From Caulobacterales bacterium (GTDB lineage: Bacteria > Pseudomonadota > Alphaproteobacteria > Caulobacterales > Caulobacteraceae), in NCBI GenBank assembly GCA_947474395.1, contig CANJID010000018.1, positions 1 through 57,214 of the forward strand: a stretch of DNA of 57,214 nucleotides, given 5' to 3'. The translations under genes were made by a program, and so were the position numbers. The notes beneath the pieces are model-generated. The model did not search any database. It was not told the DNA's origin and was given only the letters and a program-made list of their open reading frames with translations. Below are positions 30,980 to 49,501 of the stretch, in pieces; the stretch's first letter is position 1, and the number at the start of each line of letters is the position of its first letter.

Positions 30980-33900
30980 CTACTGGGCTGCCAGGGCCTC
31001 GGCCTGGCGCAGGTCCACCGAGACCAGCTGCGAGACGCCCCGCTCGGCCATGGTCACCCCGAACAGGCGGTCCATCCGCGACATGGTCACGGCGTTGTGG
31101 GTGATGACCACGAAGCGGGTGTCGGTGCGCCGGCGCATCTCGTCCAGCATACGGCAGAAACGGTCGACGTTGGCGTCGTCCAGGGGCGCATCCACCTCGT
31201 CCAGCACGCAGATCGGCGCCGGGTTGGCCAGGAACACGCCGAAGATCAGGGCCGCCGCGGTGAGGGCCTGTTCGCCCCCGGACATGAGGGACATGGACGC
31301 CAGGCGCTTGCCCGGCGGGCAGGCGAAGATCTCGAGGCCCGCTTCCAGGGGATCGTCGGACTCCACCAGCCGCAGCTCGGCCTGCCCGCCCTCGAACAGG
31401 GTCTGGAACAGGGCCTTGAACCCCTCGTTGATCACCTCGAAGGCGGCCAGCACCCGCTCGCGGCCCTCGGCGTTCAGCTCCTCGATGGCGGCGCGCAGCT
31501 TGGAGACGGCGCCGGAAAGATCGGCCCGCTCGGTCTTCATGGTCTCCAGGCGCGTGGCGTGCTCCTCGGCCTCCTCGGCGGCGCGCAGGTTCACGAGCCC
31601 CACTGCGTCCCGGGCCCGCTCCAGCTCGGCCAGCCGCTGCTCCATGCCGTTAAGGTCGAGGGCGGCGGCCTTCGGGTCCACGGTCTCGGCCAGGGCCTCG
31701 GGCTCCATCCGCGCGGTCTGGCGCAGGGCGTCGGCGGCGGCGGCGAGGCGCTCGGCGGCGGCCTCCTCGCGGGCGGTGTTGGCGGCGCGGGCCTCTCGGG
31801 CCTCGGAGGCGGCGGCTTCGGCGGCCTTGAGCGCCCGCTCAGCTTCGAAGGCGGCGGTCTCGGCGGTGGTGGAGGCGTCGGAGCTGCGGGAGAAGCGGTG
31901 CTCGGCGGTGGTCAGCTCGTCCAGCATGCGCTCGCGTCGGGCGGCGAGCCCGGCGGGGGCCTCCTGCGCCTTCAGCAGGGCCGCCTCGGCGCGGGCGCGG
32001 TCGCGTTCGAGTTCGCGGCGGCGGCCCTCGGCGGTGCGCGCGCGGCGGGTCCAGTCGGCCTGGTCGCGGGTCAGGGCGTCGCGGCGGCGCAGGCGCCCTT
32101 CCTTCTCCCTCTGTTCGGCGTCGAGGGCGGCGCGGGCGCCGGATTCGGCCTCGCGGGCCGCGCCCTGGGCCGAGCGGGCGGCGGCCAGGACGGGCTGGAG
32201 GTCGGCGGCGGGGGTCTCGGCGGCGTCGGCTTCCGCGGTGGCGGCCAGGCCTTGCGCTTCCACGGCCTCGGCTTCGACGGCGGCGAGGGCGGTCTCGCCT
32301 TCGCGGGCCTCGGCCTCGAAGCGGGCGATGGTCTCGTCGAGGGACTGGGCGCGGGCCTCGCGGCGGGCGGCGTCGCGGCCGAACCGCTCGGCGGCTTCGC
32401 GGGCTGTAGCCACCCCGCGTTCGGCTTCGGCCGGGGCCTTGCGGGCCTGACGCAGGGCCTCCTCGGCGCTGTTGAGGCGCTCGATGGCCGCCTTGTGGGC
32501 GGCGGCGGCGGCTTCGGCTGCGGGGGAGGCCGCCAGGATATCGGCTCCCAGCTCCACCAGCCGCGCCTTCTGGGCCAGGCGCTTGGCGGCGGGCTTCACC
32601 GCTTCGGCCTTGGACGTGAAACCGTCCCAGCGCCACAGGTCGCCCTCGCGGGAGACCAGGCGTGCGCCGACAGGCAGCTGCTTCTGCAGCCGCGCCCCGT
32701 CCGCCCGGTCGACGAGGCCGACGTTGGCGAGCCGCGCGGCCAGGGCGTCGGGCGCCTTCACCAGGGGAGACAGGGGCTCGACCCCCTTCGGCCAGACCGG
32801 CGCGGCGGCGTCGGCGCCGCCCCAGAAGGCCAGGGCCAGGGTGTCCAGGGCCGCGTCCAGGTCCTCGCCGATGGCGGCGGCGAGCGCGGCCTCGTAGCCG
32901 CGGTCGGGGGTCACCTGTTCCAGGGCGGGGGGATAGGCCTGTTTGCCGGCGCCCGCCTTGGCGACCTGGATCAGGCCGTCGGCCTCGCTGCGCAGGCGAG
33001 AGAGGGCGTCCTCGGCTTTGCGGGCTTCCCCGCGGGCGGCGGCCTCGGCGGCGAGGGCCAGGCCGCGCTCTCCTTCCGCGGTCTCCATGACCTCGCGGGC
33101 TTGTTGAAGAGCAGAGACGGCGGCCTGCAGAGCGGCGTCGGCGGCGGCGGCAGCGGGATCGACGTCCCCCATGGCCGTGCGGTCGAGGCGGGTGGCCTCC
33201 AGGGCGCGGCGGGTGCGGGCGATGCGGCCCTTGACCTCCTCGACGCGGGCGAGGGCCGCGCGGGCGTGGGCGCCGGCCTGGTCGACGCGATCGGCGGCGG
33301 CCCGGCGGCGGGCGGCGTCGGCGGCGAGCTCGGAGGCCAGGCGCTCGACCTCGGCGTCGGCGGCGGCGCGGGATCCTTCCGCGGCGGTCAGGGCCGCTTG
33401 CAGTTCGGGGGTGCGTTCAGGCGCGGCGGCGATGGCCGCCTCCAGGTCCGCCAGGTCCTTGGCCAGCCGCGCCAGCACCCCGGCCGCGTCCTCGACGATC
33501 TGGCCCTCGCGGCCGTGGTCGGCCTCCAGTCGGGCGATCTCCCCCTCCAGCCGGGCGACCTCGGCCAGGGCCTGCGTCTGCTCGCGCTCGATGCGGTCGC
33601 GCTCGATGCCGAGGCGCTGCACCACGGCGGCAGCGGTCATGGCCTCGTCGCGCAGGGGCTTCAGGGCTTCGGCGGCCTCAAGGGATGTGGTCTCGGCCAC
33701 GGCGACGGCCCGCGTCGCCTGTTCGACCCGCACCTGAGCTTCGGCCAGCTCCGCCGCGACCCGGTCGGCTCCGGCCTTGGCGTCGCTCCAGCGGACATAG
33801 ACGGCGGCGGCCTGGATCGCCCGCATCTCGGCTGAGACGGCCTTGTAGCGTTCGGCCTGCCGGGCCTCCCGGCGCAGGCGGGCCAGGGACGAGTCCAGCT

Positions 33901-34498
33901 CGCCCATCACGTCGGCGAGGCGCGAGAGGTTGGTCTCGGCCGCACGCAGGCGCAGGTCCGCCTCGTGGCGGCGGGTGTGCAGGCCCGACACCCCGGCCGC
34001 CTCCTCCAAGATCAGCCGGCGGTTGGCGGGCTTGGCCGCGATCAGCTCGGAGATCTGGCCCTGGCGGACCAGGGCGGGGGAATTGGCGCCGGTGGAGGCG
34101 TCGGCGAAGAGGAGCTGGACGTCGCGGGCCCGCACCTCCTGGCCGTTGATGCGATAGGTCGAGCCCTCGCCCCGGTCGATCCGGCGTGAGACCTCCAGCA
34201 CGGCGTGATGGTTGAAGGGCGCCGGCGCGTTGCGATCGGCGTTGTCGATCTGCATGACGACTTCGGCGTGGTTGCGCGCCGGGCGATTGCCGGCGCCGCC
34301 GAAGATCACCTCGTCCATGCCGCCGGCCCGCATGGCCTTGGCGGAGTTGGCGCCCATCACCCAGCGGAGCGCCTCCAGGAGGTTGGACTTGCCGCAGCCG
34401 TTCGGCCCGACCACGGCCGTCAGGCCGGGCTCGATCCTGAACTCCGTCGGATCGACGAAGGACTTGAAGCCCGACAGCCGCAGCCGCTGGAAGCGCAC
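30980..34498 (-). CDS. smc: Chromosome segregation protein SMC
   Basis: The 1172-residue condensin ATPase. The N-terminal head has Walker A in [20 protein letters not shown] (about 30-49); two alanine/glutamate/arginine-rich coiled coils (about 165-500 and 660-1000) flank the hinge (about 510-650). The C-terminal head carries the ABC signature [19 protein letters not shown] and Walker [16 protein letters not shown] with ScpAB compacts and segregates the chromosome. A 989-codon open frame on the opposite strand is a composition artefact of the GC-rich coiled-coil codons. The gene follows the DsbA-like genes by 16 bases. Confidence 0.97.
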
Positions 34499-34514: not shown

Positions 34515-35135
34515 CTACTTCGCCGCGAGCAGGGGCTGCAGCACCGCGTCGAAGGCGCTGAGCGGCTGTTCGCCCTCGAGCTTCTTGTCGCCGATGTAGA
34601 AGGTCGGGGTGGCCGCCACCTTCTGCACGTTGAGGGCCTTCTCGACCCGGTCGTTCAGGGCTTTGAGGGCCTTGTCGTCCTGGATGCAGGCCATGGTCTG
34701 GTCGTCGTTCATGCCCACCGAGCGGCCGATGCGCAGCAGCACGCCCTTGTAGTCGCCCGAGGAGAACATCTCGTTCTGGCTGTGGAACACCGCGTCGATG
34801 ACGCTGAAATACTTTTCCTTGCCGGCGCAGCGGGCGATCAGGAAGCCGGCGGCGGCCACCTGTTCGGGCGGGGTGAGGAACTCTCGGAACACGTAGCGGA
34901 CCTGGCCGGTGTCCACGTACTTCTTCTTGAAGGCCGGGAAGACCTCCTCGTTGAAGCGGGCGCAGTGCGGGCAGGTGACCGAGGCGTATTCGATCACCGT
35001 CACCTTGGCTTTGGCGTCGCCCAGCGTCATCTCGTCGCCGGAGATCGCGGTCCCGCCGCCGCCGCCTTTGCTGCAGGCGGCCAGCAGGCTCGCCGCGGCG
35101 AGGGCCAATACAATACGTCGAGCGTAGCGCCCCAT
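34515..35135 (-). CDS. DsbA-family thiol oxidoreductase, lipoprotein
   Basis: A 206-residue protein with a lipobox (SLLAAC, lipidated C21) and a thioredoxin-fold domain with active site CPHC (C55-C58) in [14 protein letters not shown]. The cis-proline loop is [10 protein letters not shown]. Two further cysteines lie in [13 protein letters not shown] and TMACIQDDK, a pattern seen in the DsbA group next to smc in alphaproteobacteria. It probably oxidises or isomerises disulphides at the inner face of the outer membrane or outer face of the inner membrane. It is immediately upstream of smc. Confidence 0.92.
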
Positions 35136-35227
35136 GGTCCTGTCCTCAGGTTGGTTTGTCATTCAAGCGCGATTCCACACCCCCCGCACAGTCCCGGGAG
35201 GGGGAAGGCGGTGGAAGCTTGCTGCGG

Positions 35228-35875
35228 CTATCTGGCCCGTAATAGCGGCTGGATAACGGCGTCGAGGGCCGTGAGCGTCTGCTCGCCCGACAGCTTCCTG
35301 TCGCCGACGAAGAAGGTCGGGGTGGAATCGATCTTGTCCACCTCGTAGGAGCGCTGCACCCGGTCATTCAGCAGCTTCATCGCCGCGTCGTCCTGGGCGC
35401 AGGTCTGGGCCTGGGCGTCGCTTAGACCGCCGGCGCGGGCGCCCTTCAGAAGCGTCGGCCCGGCGACGCCGTTCTCGTACATGTTCGCCTGGTCGCGGAA
35501 GAGGGCGTCGATGACGTCGAAATACTTGGCCGGCGGGGCGCAGCGGGCGATCAGGAAGCCGGCGGCGGCCACCTCCATCGGCGAGGTCGGGAACTCGCGA
35601 AACACGTACCGGACCTGGCCGCTGTCGATGTACTTGCGCTTGAATTCGGGGAACACCTCGGCGTTCCAGCGGGCGCAGTGGGGGCAGGTGGTGGAGGCGT
35701 ATTCGATCACCGTCACCTTGGCGGTGGCGCTCCCCAGCGACATCTCCGCCACGCCGACGGGCGGAGCGGGCGCCTTGGTCGCCGCGGGGGCGCCGGCCAT
35801 GGCGCTCTCCGCGCCGAGGGCCATCAGGCCGGCGACGGCCAGCGCGAGAGCGTAACGTCGAGCGATGCGGCGCAT
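35228..35875 (-). CDS. DsbA-family thiol oxidoreductase, soluble periplasmic
   Basis: A paralogue of the next gene (215 residues): EYASTTCPHCARWNAEVFPE holds the CPHC site, [12 protein letters not shown] and [19 protein letters not shown] follow, and IDSTPTFFVGDRKL carries the cis-proline. Here a cleavable signal peptide (about 1-27, ending SAMA) replaces the lipobox, so the protein should be soluble in the periplasm. The two genes share length and motif spacing and arose by duplication. The 92-base gap between them lacks an obvious terminator. Confidence 0.92.
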   Translation of the reverse strand: MRRIARRYALALAVAGLMALGAESAMAGAPAATKAPAPPVGVAEMSLGSATAKVTVIEYASTTCPHCARWNAEVFPEFKRKYIDSGQVRYVFREFPTSPMEVAAAGFLIARCAPPAKYFDVIDALFRDQANMYENGVAGPTLLKGARAGGLSDAQAQTCAQDDAAMKLLNDRVQRSYEVDKIDSTPTFFVGDRKLSGEQTLTALDAVIQPLLRAR

Positions 35876-36092: not shown

Positions 36093-36860
36093 ATGTTCCA
36101 CCGCCGCTCGATGATCGCCCTGACGGCCCTCGCCCTCGCTTTGGCAGTGCCGGCCGTCACCTTCGCCGCCGTCGCGGTCAATCCGACCCCGCCCAAGACC
36201 CCCGCCTTCATCCAGCAGGCCATCGACAACCCGGCCCGCAGCGCCACCCAGCGCGCCCGCGACGTGAACCGCAAGCCGGGCGAGACACTCTCGCTGCTCG
36301 GTCTGAAACAGGGCGACCAGGTGATCGAGATCGCCTCGTTCGGCCAGTACTACAGCGACATCCTGTCCCCGGCGATCGGGGCCAAGGGCAAGCTCTACAT
36401 GTTCGACATGCCCTATCTGGAGACGCGCACGGCGCCCGCCTCCAGGGCCTTCGTGACCACCCACCCCAACACCGAGTTCAAGGTCGACAAGTTCGACGAG
36501 CTCGACTACCCCAAGGGCGTCGATAAGGTCCTGATCGTGCTCTACTATCACGACCTGAAGCCCAACAAGGTCGACACCGCCGTCCTCGACAAGAAGCTGT
36601 TCGACGCTTTGAAGCCGGGCGGGCGCCTGCTGATCGTGGACCACAAGGCCGAGGCGGGCTCGGCCTGGCGCGACGCCGGCACCATCCACCGGATGGGGGT
36701 CGAGACCATCGTGCAGGAGCTCACCGCCGCCGGCTTCCGCCAGATCGTCGACTCCAACCTCCTGGCCAATCCGACCGACGACCACGCCAAGATGGTCTTC
36801 TCCCCGGACGAGCGCGGCCACACCGACCAGGCCGTGTTCGTGTTCGAGAAGCCGCGGTAG
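36093..36860 (+). CDS. Secreted methyltransferase-like protein (COG4798 type)
   Basis: A 255-residue class I methyltransferase fold preceded by a signal peptide (about 1-26). FIQQAIDNPARSATQRARDV and ALKPGGRLLIVDHKAEAGSA are typical of the predicted methyltransferases of COG4798, which are often exported. The SAM-binding motif I reads VIEIASFGQYYSDIL: the usual glycine-rich loop is reduced to one glycine, so cofactor binding is doubtful. HRMGVETIVQELTAAGFRQI matches the family's later region. It has its own 217-base upstream region, containing two exact GCTGACCGC repeats 15 bases apart (36040 and 36055). Confidence 0.82.
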   Translation: MFHRRSMIALTALALALAVPAVTFAAVAVNPTPPKTPAFIQQAIDNPARSATQRARDVNRKPGETLSLLGLKQGDQVIEIASFGQYYSDILSPAIGAKGKLYMFDMPYLETRTAPASRAFVTTHPNTEFKVDKFDELDYPKGVDKVLIVLYYHDLKPNKVDTAVLDKKLFDALKPGGRLLIVDHKAEAGSAWRDAGTIHRMGVETIVQELTAAGFRQIVDSNLLANPTDDHAKMVFSPDERGHTDQAVFVFEKPR

Positions 36861-42871: not shown

Positions 42872-43210
42872 TCAACTCGTCTTGGCCTTGCAGTTCTTCA
42901 GCGGCTTGGCGGCGCCCTCGATCGTGGCGGTGGTGCCGTCGGTCCAGAACTTCGCCTTGTCATCCGAGAACTGGATGCCGTTGGGCGCCTGGGTCCGCTT
43001 CAGATTGTAGGTCTTGTTATCGCTGGTCGTCACCGTGGCCTTGGTCGGGCGCTCGGAGTCGTAGTCGATGTGGAAGACCTCTCCGCCATCGCAAGTATAG
43101 AAAGCCGAGTTGAAATTGTTCATCGGCGGCTGGTTAGCCGCCGCGGCCAGGGCGGACTGGGTAAGCAAGAACGGCGCAAGCGCGGCGCCGGCCACGAACA
43201 GGGCCTTCAT
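42872..43210 (-). CDS. MliC-like secreted protein (lysozyme inhibitor family)
   Basis: A 112-residue protein with a signal peptide (about 1-22, ending SALA). The mature part AFYTCDGGEVFHIDYDSERP, then ATVTTSDNKTYNLKRT and KFWTDGTTATIEG follows the MliC pattern (FxCxxG, a strand, then WxxG-like and a closing strand). MliC and PliC proteins inhibit C-type lysozyme in the periplasm. The two cysteines (CDGG and KNCKAK) match the family's disulphide. No lipobox is seen, so it should be soluble. Confidence 0.8.
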   Translation of the reverse strand: MKALFVAGAALAPFLLTQSALAAAANQPPMNNFNSAFYTCDGGEVFHIDYDSERPTKATVTTSDNKTYNLKRTQAPNGIQFSDDKAKFWTDGTTATIEGAAKPLKNCKAKTS

Positions 43211-43326
43211 CGTCGGGCTCCTTCCCACTCGCAGCCGATCTCCGCCGGCTGCCCCGCCAGCTTACTCAGTCTGCGCGGATGTTGGAGTCCCTTTGAAAGG
43301 GGGCGTGTAATCGTGAACGGGGCCCG

Positions 43327-45069: not shown

Positions 45070-45597
45070 TCAGCGGAACGAGCCGAAGTCGGTCCCGTCC
45101 TGGCGGGCGACCCGCACCGGGGTGTTGGGCAGCTCGCCGCGCCGCAGCTGATTGGACAGGTACATGAAGGCCTTGTCCGCATCGCTCCAGGTGGTGGCGC
45201 CGATCTCGTTGTGGATGTCCGTCTCATACCAGCTGTAGCTGATCGGGGTGCTGCGGCCGCCGGTCACGACCGTGCCGGTGACGCTGGCGCCGCCAAGCGC
45301 GATGCTGCGCATGGAGAGGCCGAGGCGCGAGCCCCACTGGCCGGCGGTCGGGCGATTCGGCTTCACGTCTTCGATCACGAGGTTCACGCGATCGGGGCCG
45401 TTGTCGTTGCGGGCGTAGGCGCTACGGACGGAATCGGCGAGCCACTTGGTCAGGTCGTCGAGCTCACGCTGGCCGTAGGTCTCGGCCTTTTTCTGCAGGG
45501 CGGGGCCGATCGTGACGGTGATGTCGGTCTTGGCGAACGCAGGGGCGGCTATGGCGACGGCCAGGGCGGCGACGGCGGGAGCGATGAGGCGGTGCAT
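45070..45597 (-). CDS. Secreted protein of unknown function
   Basis: 175 residues with a signal peptide (about 1-22, ending PAFA). The mature protein begins DITVTIGPALQKKAETYGQR and contains RVNLVIEDVKPNRPTAGQ and LSMRSIALGGASVTGTVVTG; no cysteine is present. The VNLVIEDVKPNRPT segment resembles small periplasmic proteins of Caulobacterales that I cannot name. AAGGAGC lies six bases before the ATG. An upstream open frame extension has no ribosome binding site and is ignored. Confidence 0.78.
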   Translation of the reverse strand: MHRLIAPAVAALAVAIAAPAFAKTDITVTIGPALQKKAETYGQRELDDLTKWLADSVRSAYARNDNGPDRVNLVIEDVKPNRPTAGQWGSRLGLSMRSIALGGASVTGTVVTGGRSTPISYSWYETDIHNEIGATTWSDADKAFMYLSNQLRRGELPNTPVRVARQDGTDFGSFR

Positions 45598-45693
45598 GGT
45601 GATGCTCCTTACGCAACGGCGTTGCGTCTTAGATGGCCCCCCTACCTGAGCCTGCAACCATCATAACATAGCTTGGCGGGCGAAATCAGGGCC

Positions 45694-47869: not shown

Positions 47870-47925
47870 ACCCGTCGATCTCGTCGTCCGCGGCGGCGAA
47901 ATCCCGAACCACCAGCAGCACGCAC

Positions 47926-47960
47926 GAAAAAGCCCGCGGGAGAGACCCCCGCGGGCTTCG
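47926..47960 (-). terminator. Rho-independent terminator
   Basis: On the minus strand AGCCCGCGGG pairs perfectly with CCCGCGGGCT across a seven-base loop, and the stem is followed by TTTTTC. It lies 22 bases after the stop codon of the cysteine-repeat protein gene. Confidence 0.9.
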
Positions 47961-47981
47961 TCGTTCAGTCAGAGCTGAGGC

Positions 47982-49385
47982 TTAGCGCCGGGTTCCCGCC
48001 GCTGCGGCCGGAGCCGAGGCGACCACGTTGGTCGGCAGGGTGCAGCCCCCGCCGATGCCCTTGGCCGCGGTGCAGGCGATCACCGACTTCACCTTGTCGG
48101 AGCTGGTCTCATACTCGATCACCCAGCCCGGCAGCTTGTCGGAGCAGGCGGTCTCGATGAACTCCGAGGACTCCGCGGTGCCGATCGAACGGGCGCCGGA
48201 AACGGTGCAGGTGGTCTTGCCCTGGGAGGCCAGAGCCTGGGTCAGGCCCGGATAGGCCGCATCGAGGGCCGAGAGCTTGCAGTTCAGCCCGCGGGTGGTG
48301 GCCCGCACGCAGTCATAGAACTTCGCCTTGCTGCCCGAGTCGGTCGGGAAATAGGCGATCACGCTCGCGGGACGATTGGCGCAGGACAGTTCGACCATCT
48401 CGGCCTTGGTGGTCGGGTCGACCGCCAGGAACCGGTACTGCGACACGCTGCAGGTCATGCCCGCGGCGGTGGCCAGCTTGGTGTAGGTGGCGTTCTCAGC
48501 GGTCAGGGCGGTGTTCACGTTGGTGAAGGTGCAGCCGCCGGCGATGCCTTCGGCCTGGGCGCAGTTGAGGGCGCGGACGAACTGCTCGGTGGCGCTGGCC
48601 TCGACCATGAAGCCGGGCTTGCCGCCGTCGCAGCCGTATTCGTAGTACTCGGTGCCCTTGGTCGGATCGCCGGCGACCCAGCGCGCCTGATTGATGGTGC
48701 AATCCTTGGCGAAGGGGGCCGGGGCGGCGATCTTGGCCGCGTGGGAGATCCGCTGGGCCTTCGGGGTGAACTCGCATTCCACCTTGGCCAGTTCGGCCTT
48801 GAGGCAGTTCATCTCCGAGATCTTGGCGGCCGAGCCGGGCTGGGGCGCGTTGAGGATATAGCCCGTGCCTTCGGAGCAGCCGACTTCGTAGATGTTGAGG
48901 CCCTGGGTGTTGTTCATGCCGATCAGGCGGGCGTTGTTGACCGTGCAGGCCGCGCCGCCCGCGGTGGTGACCTTTTGCAGGCCGGAGGCGGGGTTGGCGT
49001 TGGCCGGCAGCAGGCACTTGGTCGCGACCAGCGGGGCGGCGACGCAGTCGAACAGCTGCGGCTTATCCGGGGCGGGCTTGGTCACGAGGATGTAGCCCAT
49101 GCCTTCCGAGCAGGCGAGCTCGTAGAACTTGGCCGTGAAGTCCTTGCCGTCGACCTTCTGGACGCCCGCGCCGACATAGGCGGCGGAGGTGAGCGTGCAG
49201 GGCGCGCCGGAGGCGGTCACCAGCGGCGGCGCCTCCTTCATGCCCTGGTCGATCTGCGGCTTGGTGATGACGGTGGGCGGCTTGGCGGCGGCGGCGCCCG
49301 CGGCCGCTTGGCCGGCGAAGGCCTGCGGCGCGTTGGCGAAGACCACCGCGGCCAGAGCGGCCAGCATGATCATGAAGCGTTGCAT
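47982..49385 (-). CDS. Secreted protein of five tandem four-cysteine repeats
   Basis: A 467-residue exported protein: signal peptide about 1-24, a linker to residue 60, then five modules of about 62-66 residues spaced by 22-26. Each has C-x(20-28)-C-x(21-23)-C-x9-C. The cysteines are 63/92/114/124, 147/170/194/204, 229/252/275/285, 312/335/359/369 and 393/414/438/448, with none outside the repeats. Shared residues include C[TS][VIL]xxxR near the first cysteine, [YFI]E-x2-C at the second, and an aromatic/hydrophobic strand after a glycine. I do not recognise the family. A strong terminator follows the gene and nothing is co-transcribed, so it is a single-gene unit. Confidence 0.9.
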   Translation of the reverse strand: MQRFMIMLAALAAVVFANAPQAFAGQAAAGAAAAKPPTVITKPQIDQGMKEAPPLVTASGAPCTLTSAAYVGAGVQKVDGKDFTAKFYELACSEGMGYILVTKPAPDKPQLFDCVAAPLVATKCLLPANANPASGLQKVTTAGGAACTVNNARLIGMNNTQGLNIYEVGCSEGTGYILNAPQPGSAAKISEMNCLKAELAKVECEFTPKAQRISHAAKIAAPAPFAKDCTINQARWVAGDPTKGTEYYEYGCDGGKPGFMVEASATEQFVRALNCAQAEGIAGGCTFTNVNTALTAENATYTKLATAAGMTCSVSQYRFLAVDPTTKAEMVELSCANRPASVIAYFPTDSGSKAKFYDCVRATTRGLNCKLSALDAAYPGLTQALASQGKTTCTVSGARSIGTAESSEFIETACSDKLPGWVIEYETSSDKVKSVIACTAAKGIGGGCTLPTNVVASAPAAAAGTRR

Positions 49386-49501
49386 CTTGGATCGCTCTCC
49401 TGAAGTTCCCTTGGGCGGAGCTTAAATCTCCGCGCGCGCCGGTGGTCAAGACTCACCTATCAAGCGCCCTGATCGTGGCGAGCCAGTGGCGGGGGAAACG
49501 C

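What the first reader, a model, noticed from the sequence alone, without database searches (positions are those of the whole stretch)
47982..49385. Secreted protein built of five tandem four-cysteine modules
The mature protein is entirely made of five modules with strict C-x(20-28)-C-x(21-23)-C-x9-C spacing; the C-x9-C end is invariant in all five and all 20 cysteines are inside modules. An even count and regular spacing suggest two disulphides per module. I know no named domain with this pattern. It is a single-gene unit with its own strong terminator, so it was kept as an independent function, possibly envelope binding or adhesion. Two DsbA-like oxidases encoded 13 kb away could serve it.
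Basis: partly seen in the sequence, partly recalled or inferred. Interest (0 to 1): 0.7.

Follow-up and report, generated by a model that had tools for sequence, protein, structure and literature searches.

The report
Caulobacter-family secreted disulfide-module protein
A secreted protein made of five copies of a small cysteine-rich building block turns out to be carried by nearly every sampled bacterium of the Caulobacter family, was not credibly found in any sampled genome outside it, fits no named protein family, and probably works as a rigid multi-site binding protein of the cell envelope, although what it binds is unknown.

Summary
The ORF at 47982-49385 encodes 467 aa with a signal-peptide-like N-terminus and 20 cysteines in five four-Cys modules. 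The modules are real repeats: their profiles match pairwise at hhalign probability 97.2-99.7. One detail is not a rule: C-x9-C in all five modules occurs in 1 of 68 five-module relatives, this one.

No significant Pfam, NCBIfam or PDB sequence match. Members occur in 381 of 390 genomes of the window's family. No credible hit lies outside it.

Relatives read as complete have one to five modules; single-module proteins keep just the four module cysteines in the mature part. So the module is the unit, probably with two internal disulfides (pairing not shown). AlphaFold gives a helix plus four antiparallel strands (pLDDT 86.9 and 88.2), without a clear solved counterpart. One glutamate is present in 399 of 399 modules. 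A promoter-like motif is conserved upstream.

Best reading: a constitutive, non-catalytic, multivalent periplasmic or secreted binding protein; ligand unknown.

The parts
47982..49385 (-). ORF, 467 aa, secreted five-module protein (P0002)
   Evidence: members in 381 of 390 genomes of the same family
49314..49385 (-). signal-peptide-like N-terminus, residues 1-24 (MQRFMIM...AFA|GQ)
   Evidence: read from the sequence by eye; no signal-peptide predictor was available; hydrophobic N-termini also in the homologs of A1
49005..49262 (-). module 1, residues 42-127 (C63, C92, C114, C124; E89)
48768..48998 (-). module 2, residues 130-206 (C147, C170, C194, C204; E167)
48522..48764 (-). module 3, residues 208-288 (C229, C252, C275, C285; E249)
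48273..48518 (-). module 4, residues 290-371 (C312, C335, C359, C369; E332)
48030..48269 (-). module 5, residues 373-452 (C393, C414, C438, C448; E411)
   Evidence: a fragment of this module was modelled alone
49421..49449 (-). promoter-like motif TTGACC-N-TTTAAG, conserved in position upstream of homologs
   Evidence: TTGAC-N15-20-TTA[AT][GA] within 300 bp in 45 of 50 loci against 19 of 980 random 300-bp stretches of the same loci; pattern drawn after looking at 12 upstream sequences; the generic sigma-70 scan found nothing
47924..47964 (-). GC-rich hairpin with U-run downstream of the stop codon, terminator-like
   Evidence: 61-nt fold -34 kcal/mol, z -4.33 against 200 shuffles; consensus terminator scan found 0

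Best explanation
A Caulobacteraceae lineage protein, exported through a Sec-type signal, that acts as a non-catalytic multivalent binding (scaffold or ligand-binding) protein in the periplasm or at the cell surface. Shown here: the sequence, the five homologous modules, the conservation of 20 cysteines, its presence in nearly all sampled genomes of the family and lack of a credible hit in those sampled outside, natural copy numbers of one to five, and a confident predicted fold per module (helix, then four antiparallel strands, with the four Cys before strand 1, at the end of strand 2, just after strand 4, and about ten residues later). Inferred: two disulfides inside each module (C1-C2 plus C3-C4 looks the simplest, not shown) made by DsbA-type oxidases; a string of rigid modules; and a binding site repeated on each module near the invariant Glu of strand 2, which by strand alternation should lie on the sheet face opposite to the Cys and aromatic residues. 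The conserved housekeeping-type promoter motif suggests steady expression. The ligand (peptidoglycan, LPS, an outer-membrane protein or a foreign hydrolase) is unknown. My confidence in the structural reading is about 0.85; in 'multivalent non-catalytic binder', about 0.45.
For: Homologous modules with position-specific identity: 363 of 364 modules of five-module proteins match best the profile of their own position (the profiles were built from 27 of these proteins, so partly by construction), so the five positions have been kept distinct within the family. Invariant Cys; Glu in 399 of 399 distinct module segments, Cys 2 and 3 in 399 of 399 (segments were picked by a profile that rewards these residues). 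The three segments lacking a Cys at its column are a one-residue shift, a contig end and a long loop. 381 of 390 genomes of the family, 309 of 311 high-quality ones. Natural one-, two-, three- and four-module forms. Models with pLDDT 86.9/pTM 0.70 and 88.2/pTM 0.79. No CxxC in 399 modules and no His in 325 of 399, against a redox or a His/Cys metal site. No operon partner: in 38 of 52 loci the gene just upstream and in 32 of 52 a gene downstream lie on the opposite strand. Own promoter-like motif.
Against: No ligand, phenotype, localisation or expression data. 'Binding' rests on the general logic of small disulfide-rich repeats, not on a test. The invariant Glu could be structural. The inter-module arrangement is predicted only (pTM 0.70), and no coordinates were available to check Cys-Cys distances or surface conservation. 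A purely structural envelope role, an inhibitor or an undiscovered enzyme are not excluded. In the window itself aroC lies 116 bp upstream on the same strand, so read-through from aroC is possible there.
Confidence: 0.45

Rival explanations
1. A multi-headed inhibitor of proteases or other hydrolases, in the manner of tandem cystatin proteins such as kininogen: each helix-plus-four-strand module carries an inhibitory edge.
For: The single-module model aligns over 70 of its 86 residues with monellin, a small helix-on-sheet protein of the cystatin-like fold (fold class recalled), Z 5.7, rmsd 3.0. Tandem, disulfide-bonded, secreted architecture resembles kininogens (recalled).
Against: Z under 8 may mean only a common arrangement (the tool's own note), and unrelated kinase lobes score the same (MphH Z 5.8); Foldseek gives no match at E 0.001. 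The recalled cystatin motifs are not a feature of the family: QxVxG in 5 of 399 modules, PW in 2 of 399. One of those 5 is module 1 of the window protein. Pfam's Inhibitor_I69 appears for 4 of 115 modules at best E 0.008, which is chance level for 115 scans.
Confidence: 0.12
2. A purely structural spacer of the envelope: a rigid rod that sets a distance or strengthens a layer, with no specific ligand on each module.
For: String of similar rigid modules; almost universal in the family with module number free to change; constitutive-type promoter motif.
Against: A spacer would not need an invariant Glu in every module, and changes of length from one to five modules would be poorly tolerated by a fixed-distance spacer. 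No membrane anchor or cell-wall motif was noticed by eye.
Confidence: 0.2
3. Each module is one blade of a five-bladed beta-propeller, closed into a ring that binds sugars.
For: Five copies; four antiparallel strands per copy; Foldseek's whole-model hits are mostly beta-propellers, including PLL/PHL lectins, at E down to 4e-6, and single blades align at 45-61 residues with rmsd about 2-3.
Against: The same whole-model matches have TM-scores 0.11-0.15 and rmsd about 18-26, so the model is not a ring; the modules are separated by helices; complete relatives with one, two, three or four modules exist.
Confidence: 0.05
4. A thiol reservoir, redox buffer or metal-binding protein.
For: Twenty cysteines.
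Against: No CxxC in 399 modules, no His in 325 of 399; Cys spaced 20 residues apart on strand ends; even number per module; exported (signal-like N-terminus), where DsbA-type oxidases act (one search finds two such genes in the window).
Confidence: 0.06

Closest known systems
Type-2 cystatins and tandem-cystatin proteins (kininogen, fetuin); monellin as fold relative
   Same: One helix packed with a four-strand antiparallel sheet (monellin Z 5.7, 70 aligned, rmsd 3.0); four Cys per domain, tandem domains, secreted (family features recalled)
   Different: No sequence similarity found; recalled motifs QxVxG and PW essentially absent; weak Z shared with unrelated folds
Beta-propeller blades (PLL/PHL lectins, WD40-type, cd1 nitrite reductase NirS)
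   Same: Four-stranded antiparallel meander per module; Foldseek E to 4e-6 on the whole model; NirS Z 5.5 over 61 residues
   Different: No closed ring (TM 0.11-0.15), a helix between the modules, disulfides, module number 1 to 5
MliC-type lysozyme inhibitors (one is encoded in the same window, 42875-43228)
   Same: Small secreted beta-rich domain with Cys; a C-x-G turn
   Different: Profile comparison finds no relation (hhalign probability 0.2%, 14 columns)
Secreted tandem disulfide-rich repeat proteins in general (sushi/CCP, kringle, EGF arrays; recalled)
   Same: Design logic: many copies of a small disulfide-stabilised module, usually for multivalent binding
   Different: Different Cys spacing and predicted fold; bacterial and limited, in the samples searched, to one family

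Membership tests
Cystatin superfamily | helix packed on a four-strand antiparallel sheet (cystatin/monellin fold) | tested here: inconclusive
   Monellin Z 5.7, rmsd 3.0, 70 aligned of 86; same Z for kinase lobes; no Foldseek match at E 0.001
Cystatin superfamily | QxVxG hairpin and PW loop (motifs recalled) | tested here: not met
   QxVxG in 5 of 399 modules, PW in 2 of 399
Cystatin superfamily | sequence profile match | tested here: not met
   No cystatin family among the 25 of 34 weak Pfam families shown for 115 modules (the other 9 were not shown, each matched by one module at most), nor among PDB sequences at E up to 10
Five-bladed beta-propeller | closed ring of blades | tested here: not met
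   Whole-model TM 0.11-0.15 to propellers; complete proteins with 1-4 modules
MliC/PliC lysozyme inhibitors | MliC profile match | tested here: not met
   hhalign probability 0.2% against the window's own MliC protein; no MliC hit for the window protein or among the families shown for the modules
Any named Pfam/NCBIfam family | significant profile match | tested here: not met
   Window protein: 0 families at E up to 10. Of 27 homologs the best Pfam E is 0.038 and the best NCBIfam E 0.024; of 115 modules the best Pfam E is 0.0064, all scattered
The new family defined here (tandem four-Cys E-x-x-C modules) | four Cys per module with E-x-x-C2, helix plus four strands, export signal | tested here: met
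   export signal read by eye only

The most novel reading that the evidence does not exclude
A new, lineage-defining extracytoplasmic domain: a cystatin-like helix-plus-four-strand module with two disulfides, used in one to five copies as a multi-headed inhibitor or capture protein (against foreign proteases, cell-wall hydrolases, or phage or predator proteins), kept by nearly the whole Caulobacteraceae as an envelope shield. It would be a bacterial counterpart of the kininogen design.
Probability: 0.1. Interest if true: 0.75.

Novelty: new variant of a known kind. Interest (0 to 1): 0.5.

Why it matters
The Caulobacter family holds a main model organism of the bacterial cell cycle, yet a protein present in 381 of 390 sampled genomes of that family has no family name in the libraries searched. 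A protein that is nearly fixed in one family and undetected outside it in the samples is a candidate for whatever is special in that family's envelope. The natural one-module forms give a small, tractable unit for structure and ligand work, and the modules form a clean new profile that annotation libraries could adopt.

Tried and rejected
Rejected readings. Beta-propeller: suggested by Foldseek on the whole model, rejected by TM 0.11-0.15 and by complete 1- to 4-module relatives. MliC relation: considered because an MliC gene lies in the window; hhalign 0.2%. A relative outside the family: one marginal hit (G057, E 7.6e-4) turned out to lie in a 455-aa ORF with 3 Cys and no module at all (it looks like a succinylarginine dihydrolase, recalled). 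Phage or plasmid origin: no tblastn match in either collection at E 0.01. PHROGs: one chance match at E 3. Viral fold library: only repeat-like matches with TM about 0.1. Regulon hints: EcfG-, CtrA-, Zur- and Fur-type patterns upstream in 0 of 50 loci (patterns recalled); GANTC was commoner than in control (see Noticed in passing).

Led nowhere. Literature: searches (listings only) gave no paper that describes this protein; of PMC2241609 I saw passages, not the tables for this group. I could not learn the Caulobacter crescentus locus tag, so published fitness or proteome data could not be tied to it. Disulfide pairing could not be read: no coordinates are released, and no member has lost a Cys pair. 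Folds absent from the lists are not excluded. Fold search of the model pair did not include predicted cellular proteins (library not on hand).

Weak points of my own counts. The 399 module segments come from the 104 loci in hand, include close relatives, and were picked by a profile that rewards Cys and Glu. The promoter pattern was drawn after viewing 12 of the 50 upstream sequences. The 105 module-bearing ORFs include duplicates of the same place under two locus ids (88 distinct sequences: 74 with five modules, 3 with four, 5 with three, 2 with two, 4 with one) and fragments cut by contig ends (L021, L077, L078, L080). Rows dropped: A1 used 27 of 30 loci (L018, L021, L023 left out as near-duplicates or partial); A3 used 31 of 52 loci plus the window; A4 used 115 of the 135 modules listed (L034, L046, L060, L061 left out). 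Start codons of relatives were chosen by my own scoring.

Full report
What was claimed and what is there. The finding places a secreted protein of five four-cysteine modules at 47982-49385. The only long ORF that fits is on the minus strand, 467 aa. The C-x9-C end is the same in all five modules of this protein, but in relatives it varies: 202 of 362 modules have 9, and 1 of 68 five-module proteins, the window's own, has 9 in all five.

The modules are real repeats and old ones. Profiles of the five positions, each built from 27 homologs, match one another at hhalign probability 97.2-99.7 and E-values from 3e-11 to 1e-25. In five-module proteins 363 of 364 modules match best the profile of their own position (partly by construction, as the profiles come from 27 of these proteins). 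So the five positions became distinct before the sampled lineages of the family parted. Across 399 distinct module segments the Glu of E-x-x-C and the second and third Cys are present in 399, the first Cys in 397 and the fourth in 398 at their columns. The three exceptions are a shift by one residue, a contig end, and a loop of 33 residues with the Cys still there.

The module is the unit. Relatives that I read as complete have one, two, three, four or five modules. The four distinct one-module proteins keep exactly four Cys after the signal-like stretch. Two-module proteins consist of modules best matching positions 1 and 2 (2 of 2), and the one-module proteins best match position 1 (4 of 4). 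With four Cys left in a one-module protein, two disulfides within the module are the simplest reading. Bonds between two chains are not excluded, and the pairing is not shown.

Fold. AlphaFold, with alignments made only of window and the search for related loci sequences, gives pLDDT 86.9 and pTM 0.70 for the whole protein and 88.2 and 0.79 for a module-5 fragment. Each module is a helix followed by four antiparallel strands. Foldseek on the whole model lists mostly beta-propellers with E down to 4e-6 but TM 0.11-0.15: the modules resemble blades, the protein is not a ring. On the single module Foldseek finds nothing at E 0.001 (best 0.15). The slower aligner gives Z 5.8 for a kinase lobe (MphH) and 5.7 for monellin over 70 residues, all below the level at which the tool advises trust. 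I call it cystatin-like only as a lead.

Who has it. Searched by the protein or by profiles, members occur in 36 of 36 sampled genomes of the window's family and in 381 of 390 (309 of 311 high-quality ones; the nine misses include two high-quality genomes, G644 and G699). Outside that family: 1 of 24, shown to be spurious, 41 of 200 genomes of the order match and all 41 belong to the family, 3 of 289 genomes of the class, all of the family, 25 of 41, all of the family, and 0 of 16 others, 7 of 299 genomes of the phylum, all of the family. In named records, 52 loci were found: 44 titled Caulobacter or Caulobacteraceae, 5 Caulobacterales, and 3 only Proteobacteria or Alphaproteobacteria (MAGs). 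That scan used two peptide patterns, so it is not a census. That the unnamed family is Caulobacteraceae follows from shared contigs, for example G005 contig C5 and record NZ_PUIC01000005.1, both 520202 bases with a 43% identical member. No match in plasmids or phages.

Gene setting. In the window the upstream neighbour is aroC, same strand, 116 bp away, and downstream, convergent, lies a family-9 glycosyltransferase. In relatives the neighbours differ: aroC was found in 2 of 52 loci, the glycosyltransferase in 22 of 52 at varying distance (many loci are too short to show it), and in 38 of 52 the gene immediately upstream lies on the opposite strand (it looks like an MBL-fold hydrolase, recalled), so there it cannot share a transcript. 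A TTGACC...TTA motif stands upstream in 45 of 50 loci (19 of 980 random stretches), the last bases usually 32-60 nt before the start codon, 75 at most. The generic sigma-70 scan missed it. A GC-rich hairpin follows the stop codon. This fits a constitutive single-gene unit.

How it works. Export, disulfide formation and a string of rigid modules are well grounded. The rest is inference: small disulfide-rich repeats in several copies usually serve multivalent binding, and here each module carries the same Glu on strand 2. Chemistry is unlikely: no CxxC in 399 modules and no His in 325 of 399. I therefore favour a non-catalytic multivalent binder (0.45), over a structural spacer (0.2), a multi-headed hydrolase inhibitor (0.12), a thiol or metal store (0.06) and a ring (0.05); the remainder is unknown.

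Comparison with what is known. No significant profile match was found in Pfam, NCBIfam or PDB sequences. Weak scattered Pfam hits of single modules (best E 0.0064 among 115 scans) are at chance level. Recalled cystatin motifs are absent in nearly all modules (QxVxG 5 of 399, PW 2 of 399), so membership there is not claimed. The literature searches returned no description (listings only, plus passages of PMC2241609). I rate it a new family of a known kind (secreted tandem disulfide-rich repeats), of solid interest to Caulobacter workers and modest surprise to others.

Noticed in passing
window 42875-43228 (-): A small secreted MliC-type lysozyme inhibitor (Pfam MliC, E 4e-9); not related to the five-module protein by profile.
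   Followed up: partly
window 34518-35162 and 35231-35875 (-): Two adjacent DsbA-like thioredoxin-fold genes (Thioredoxin_4, E 6e-41 and 4e-38), next to a large ORF (30983-34498) that looks like SMC (recalled).
   Followed up: partly
300 bp upstream of the homologs (50 loci): GANTC (CcrM methylation) sites occur in 33 of 50 upstream stretches against 130 of 490 random ones; could hint at cell-cycle-linked expression, or only at intergenic composition.
   Followed up: no
window 45073-45657 (-) and 36093-36857 (+): Further secreted-looking proteins without a Pfam match.
   Followed up: no
L089 4461-5531 and 6689-7708 (-): Two different three-module members stand about 1.2 kb apart on the same strand in one genome, and another genome (L103) has two five-module members 8 kb apart: local duplication.
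   Followed up: no
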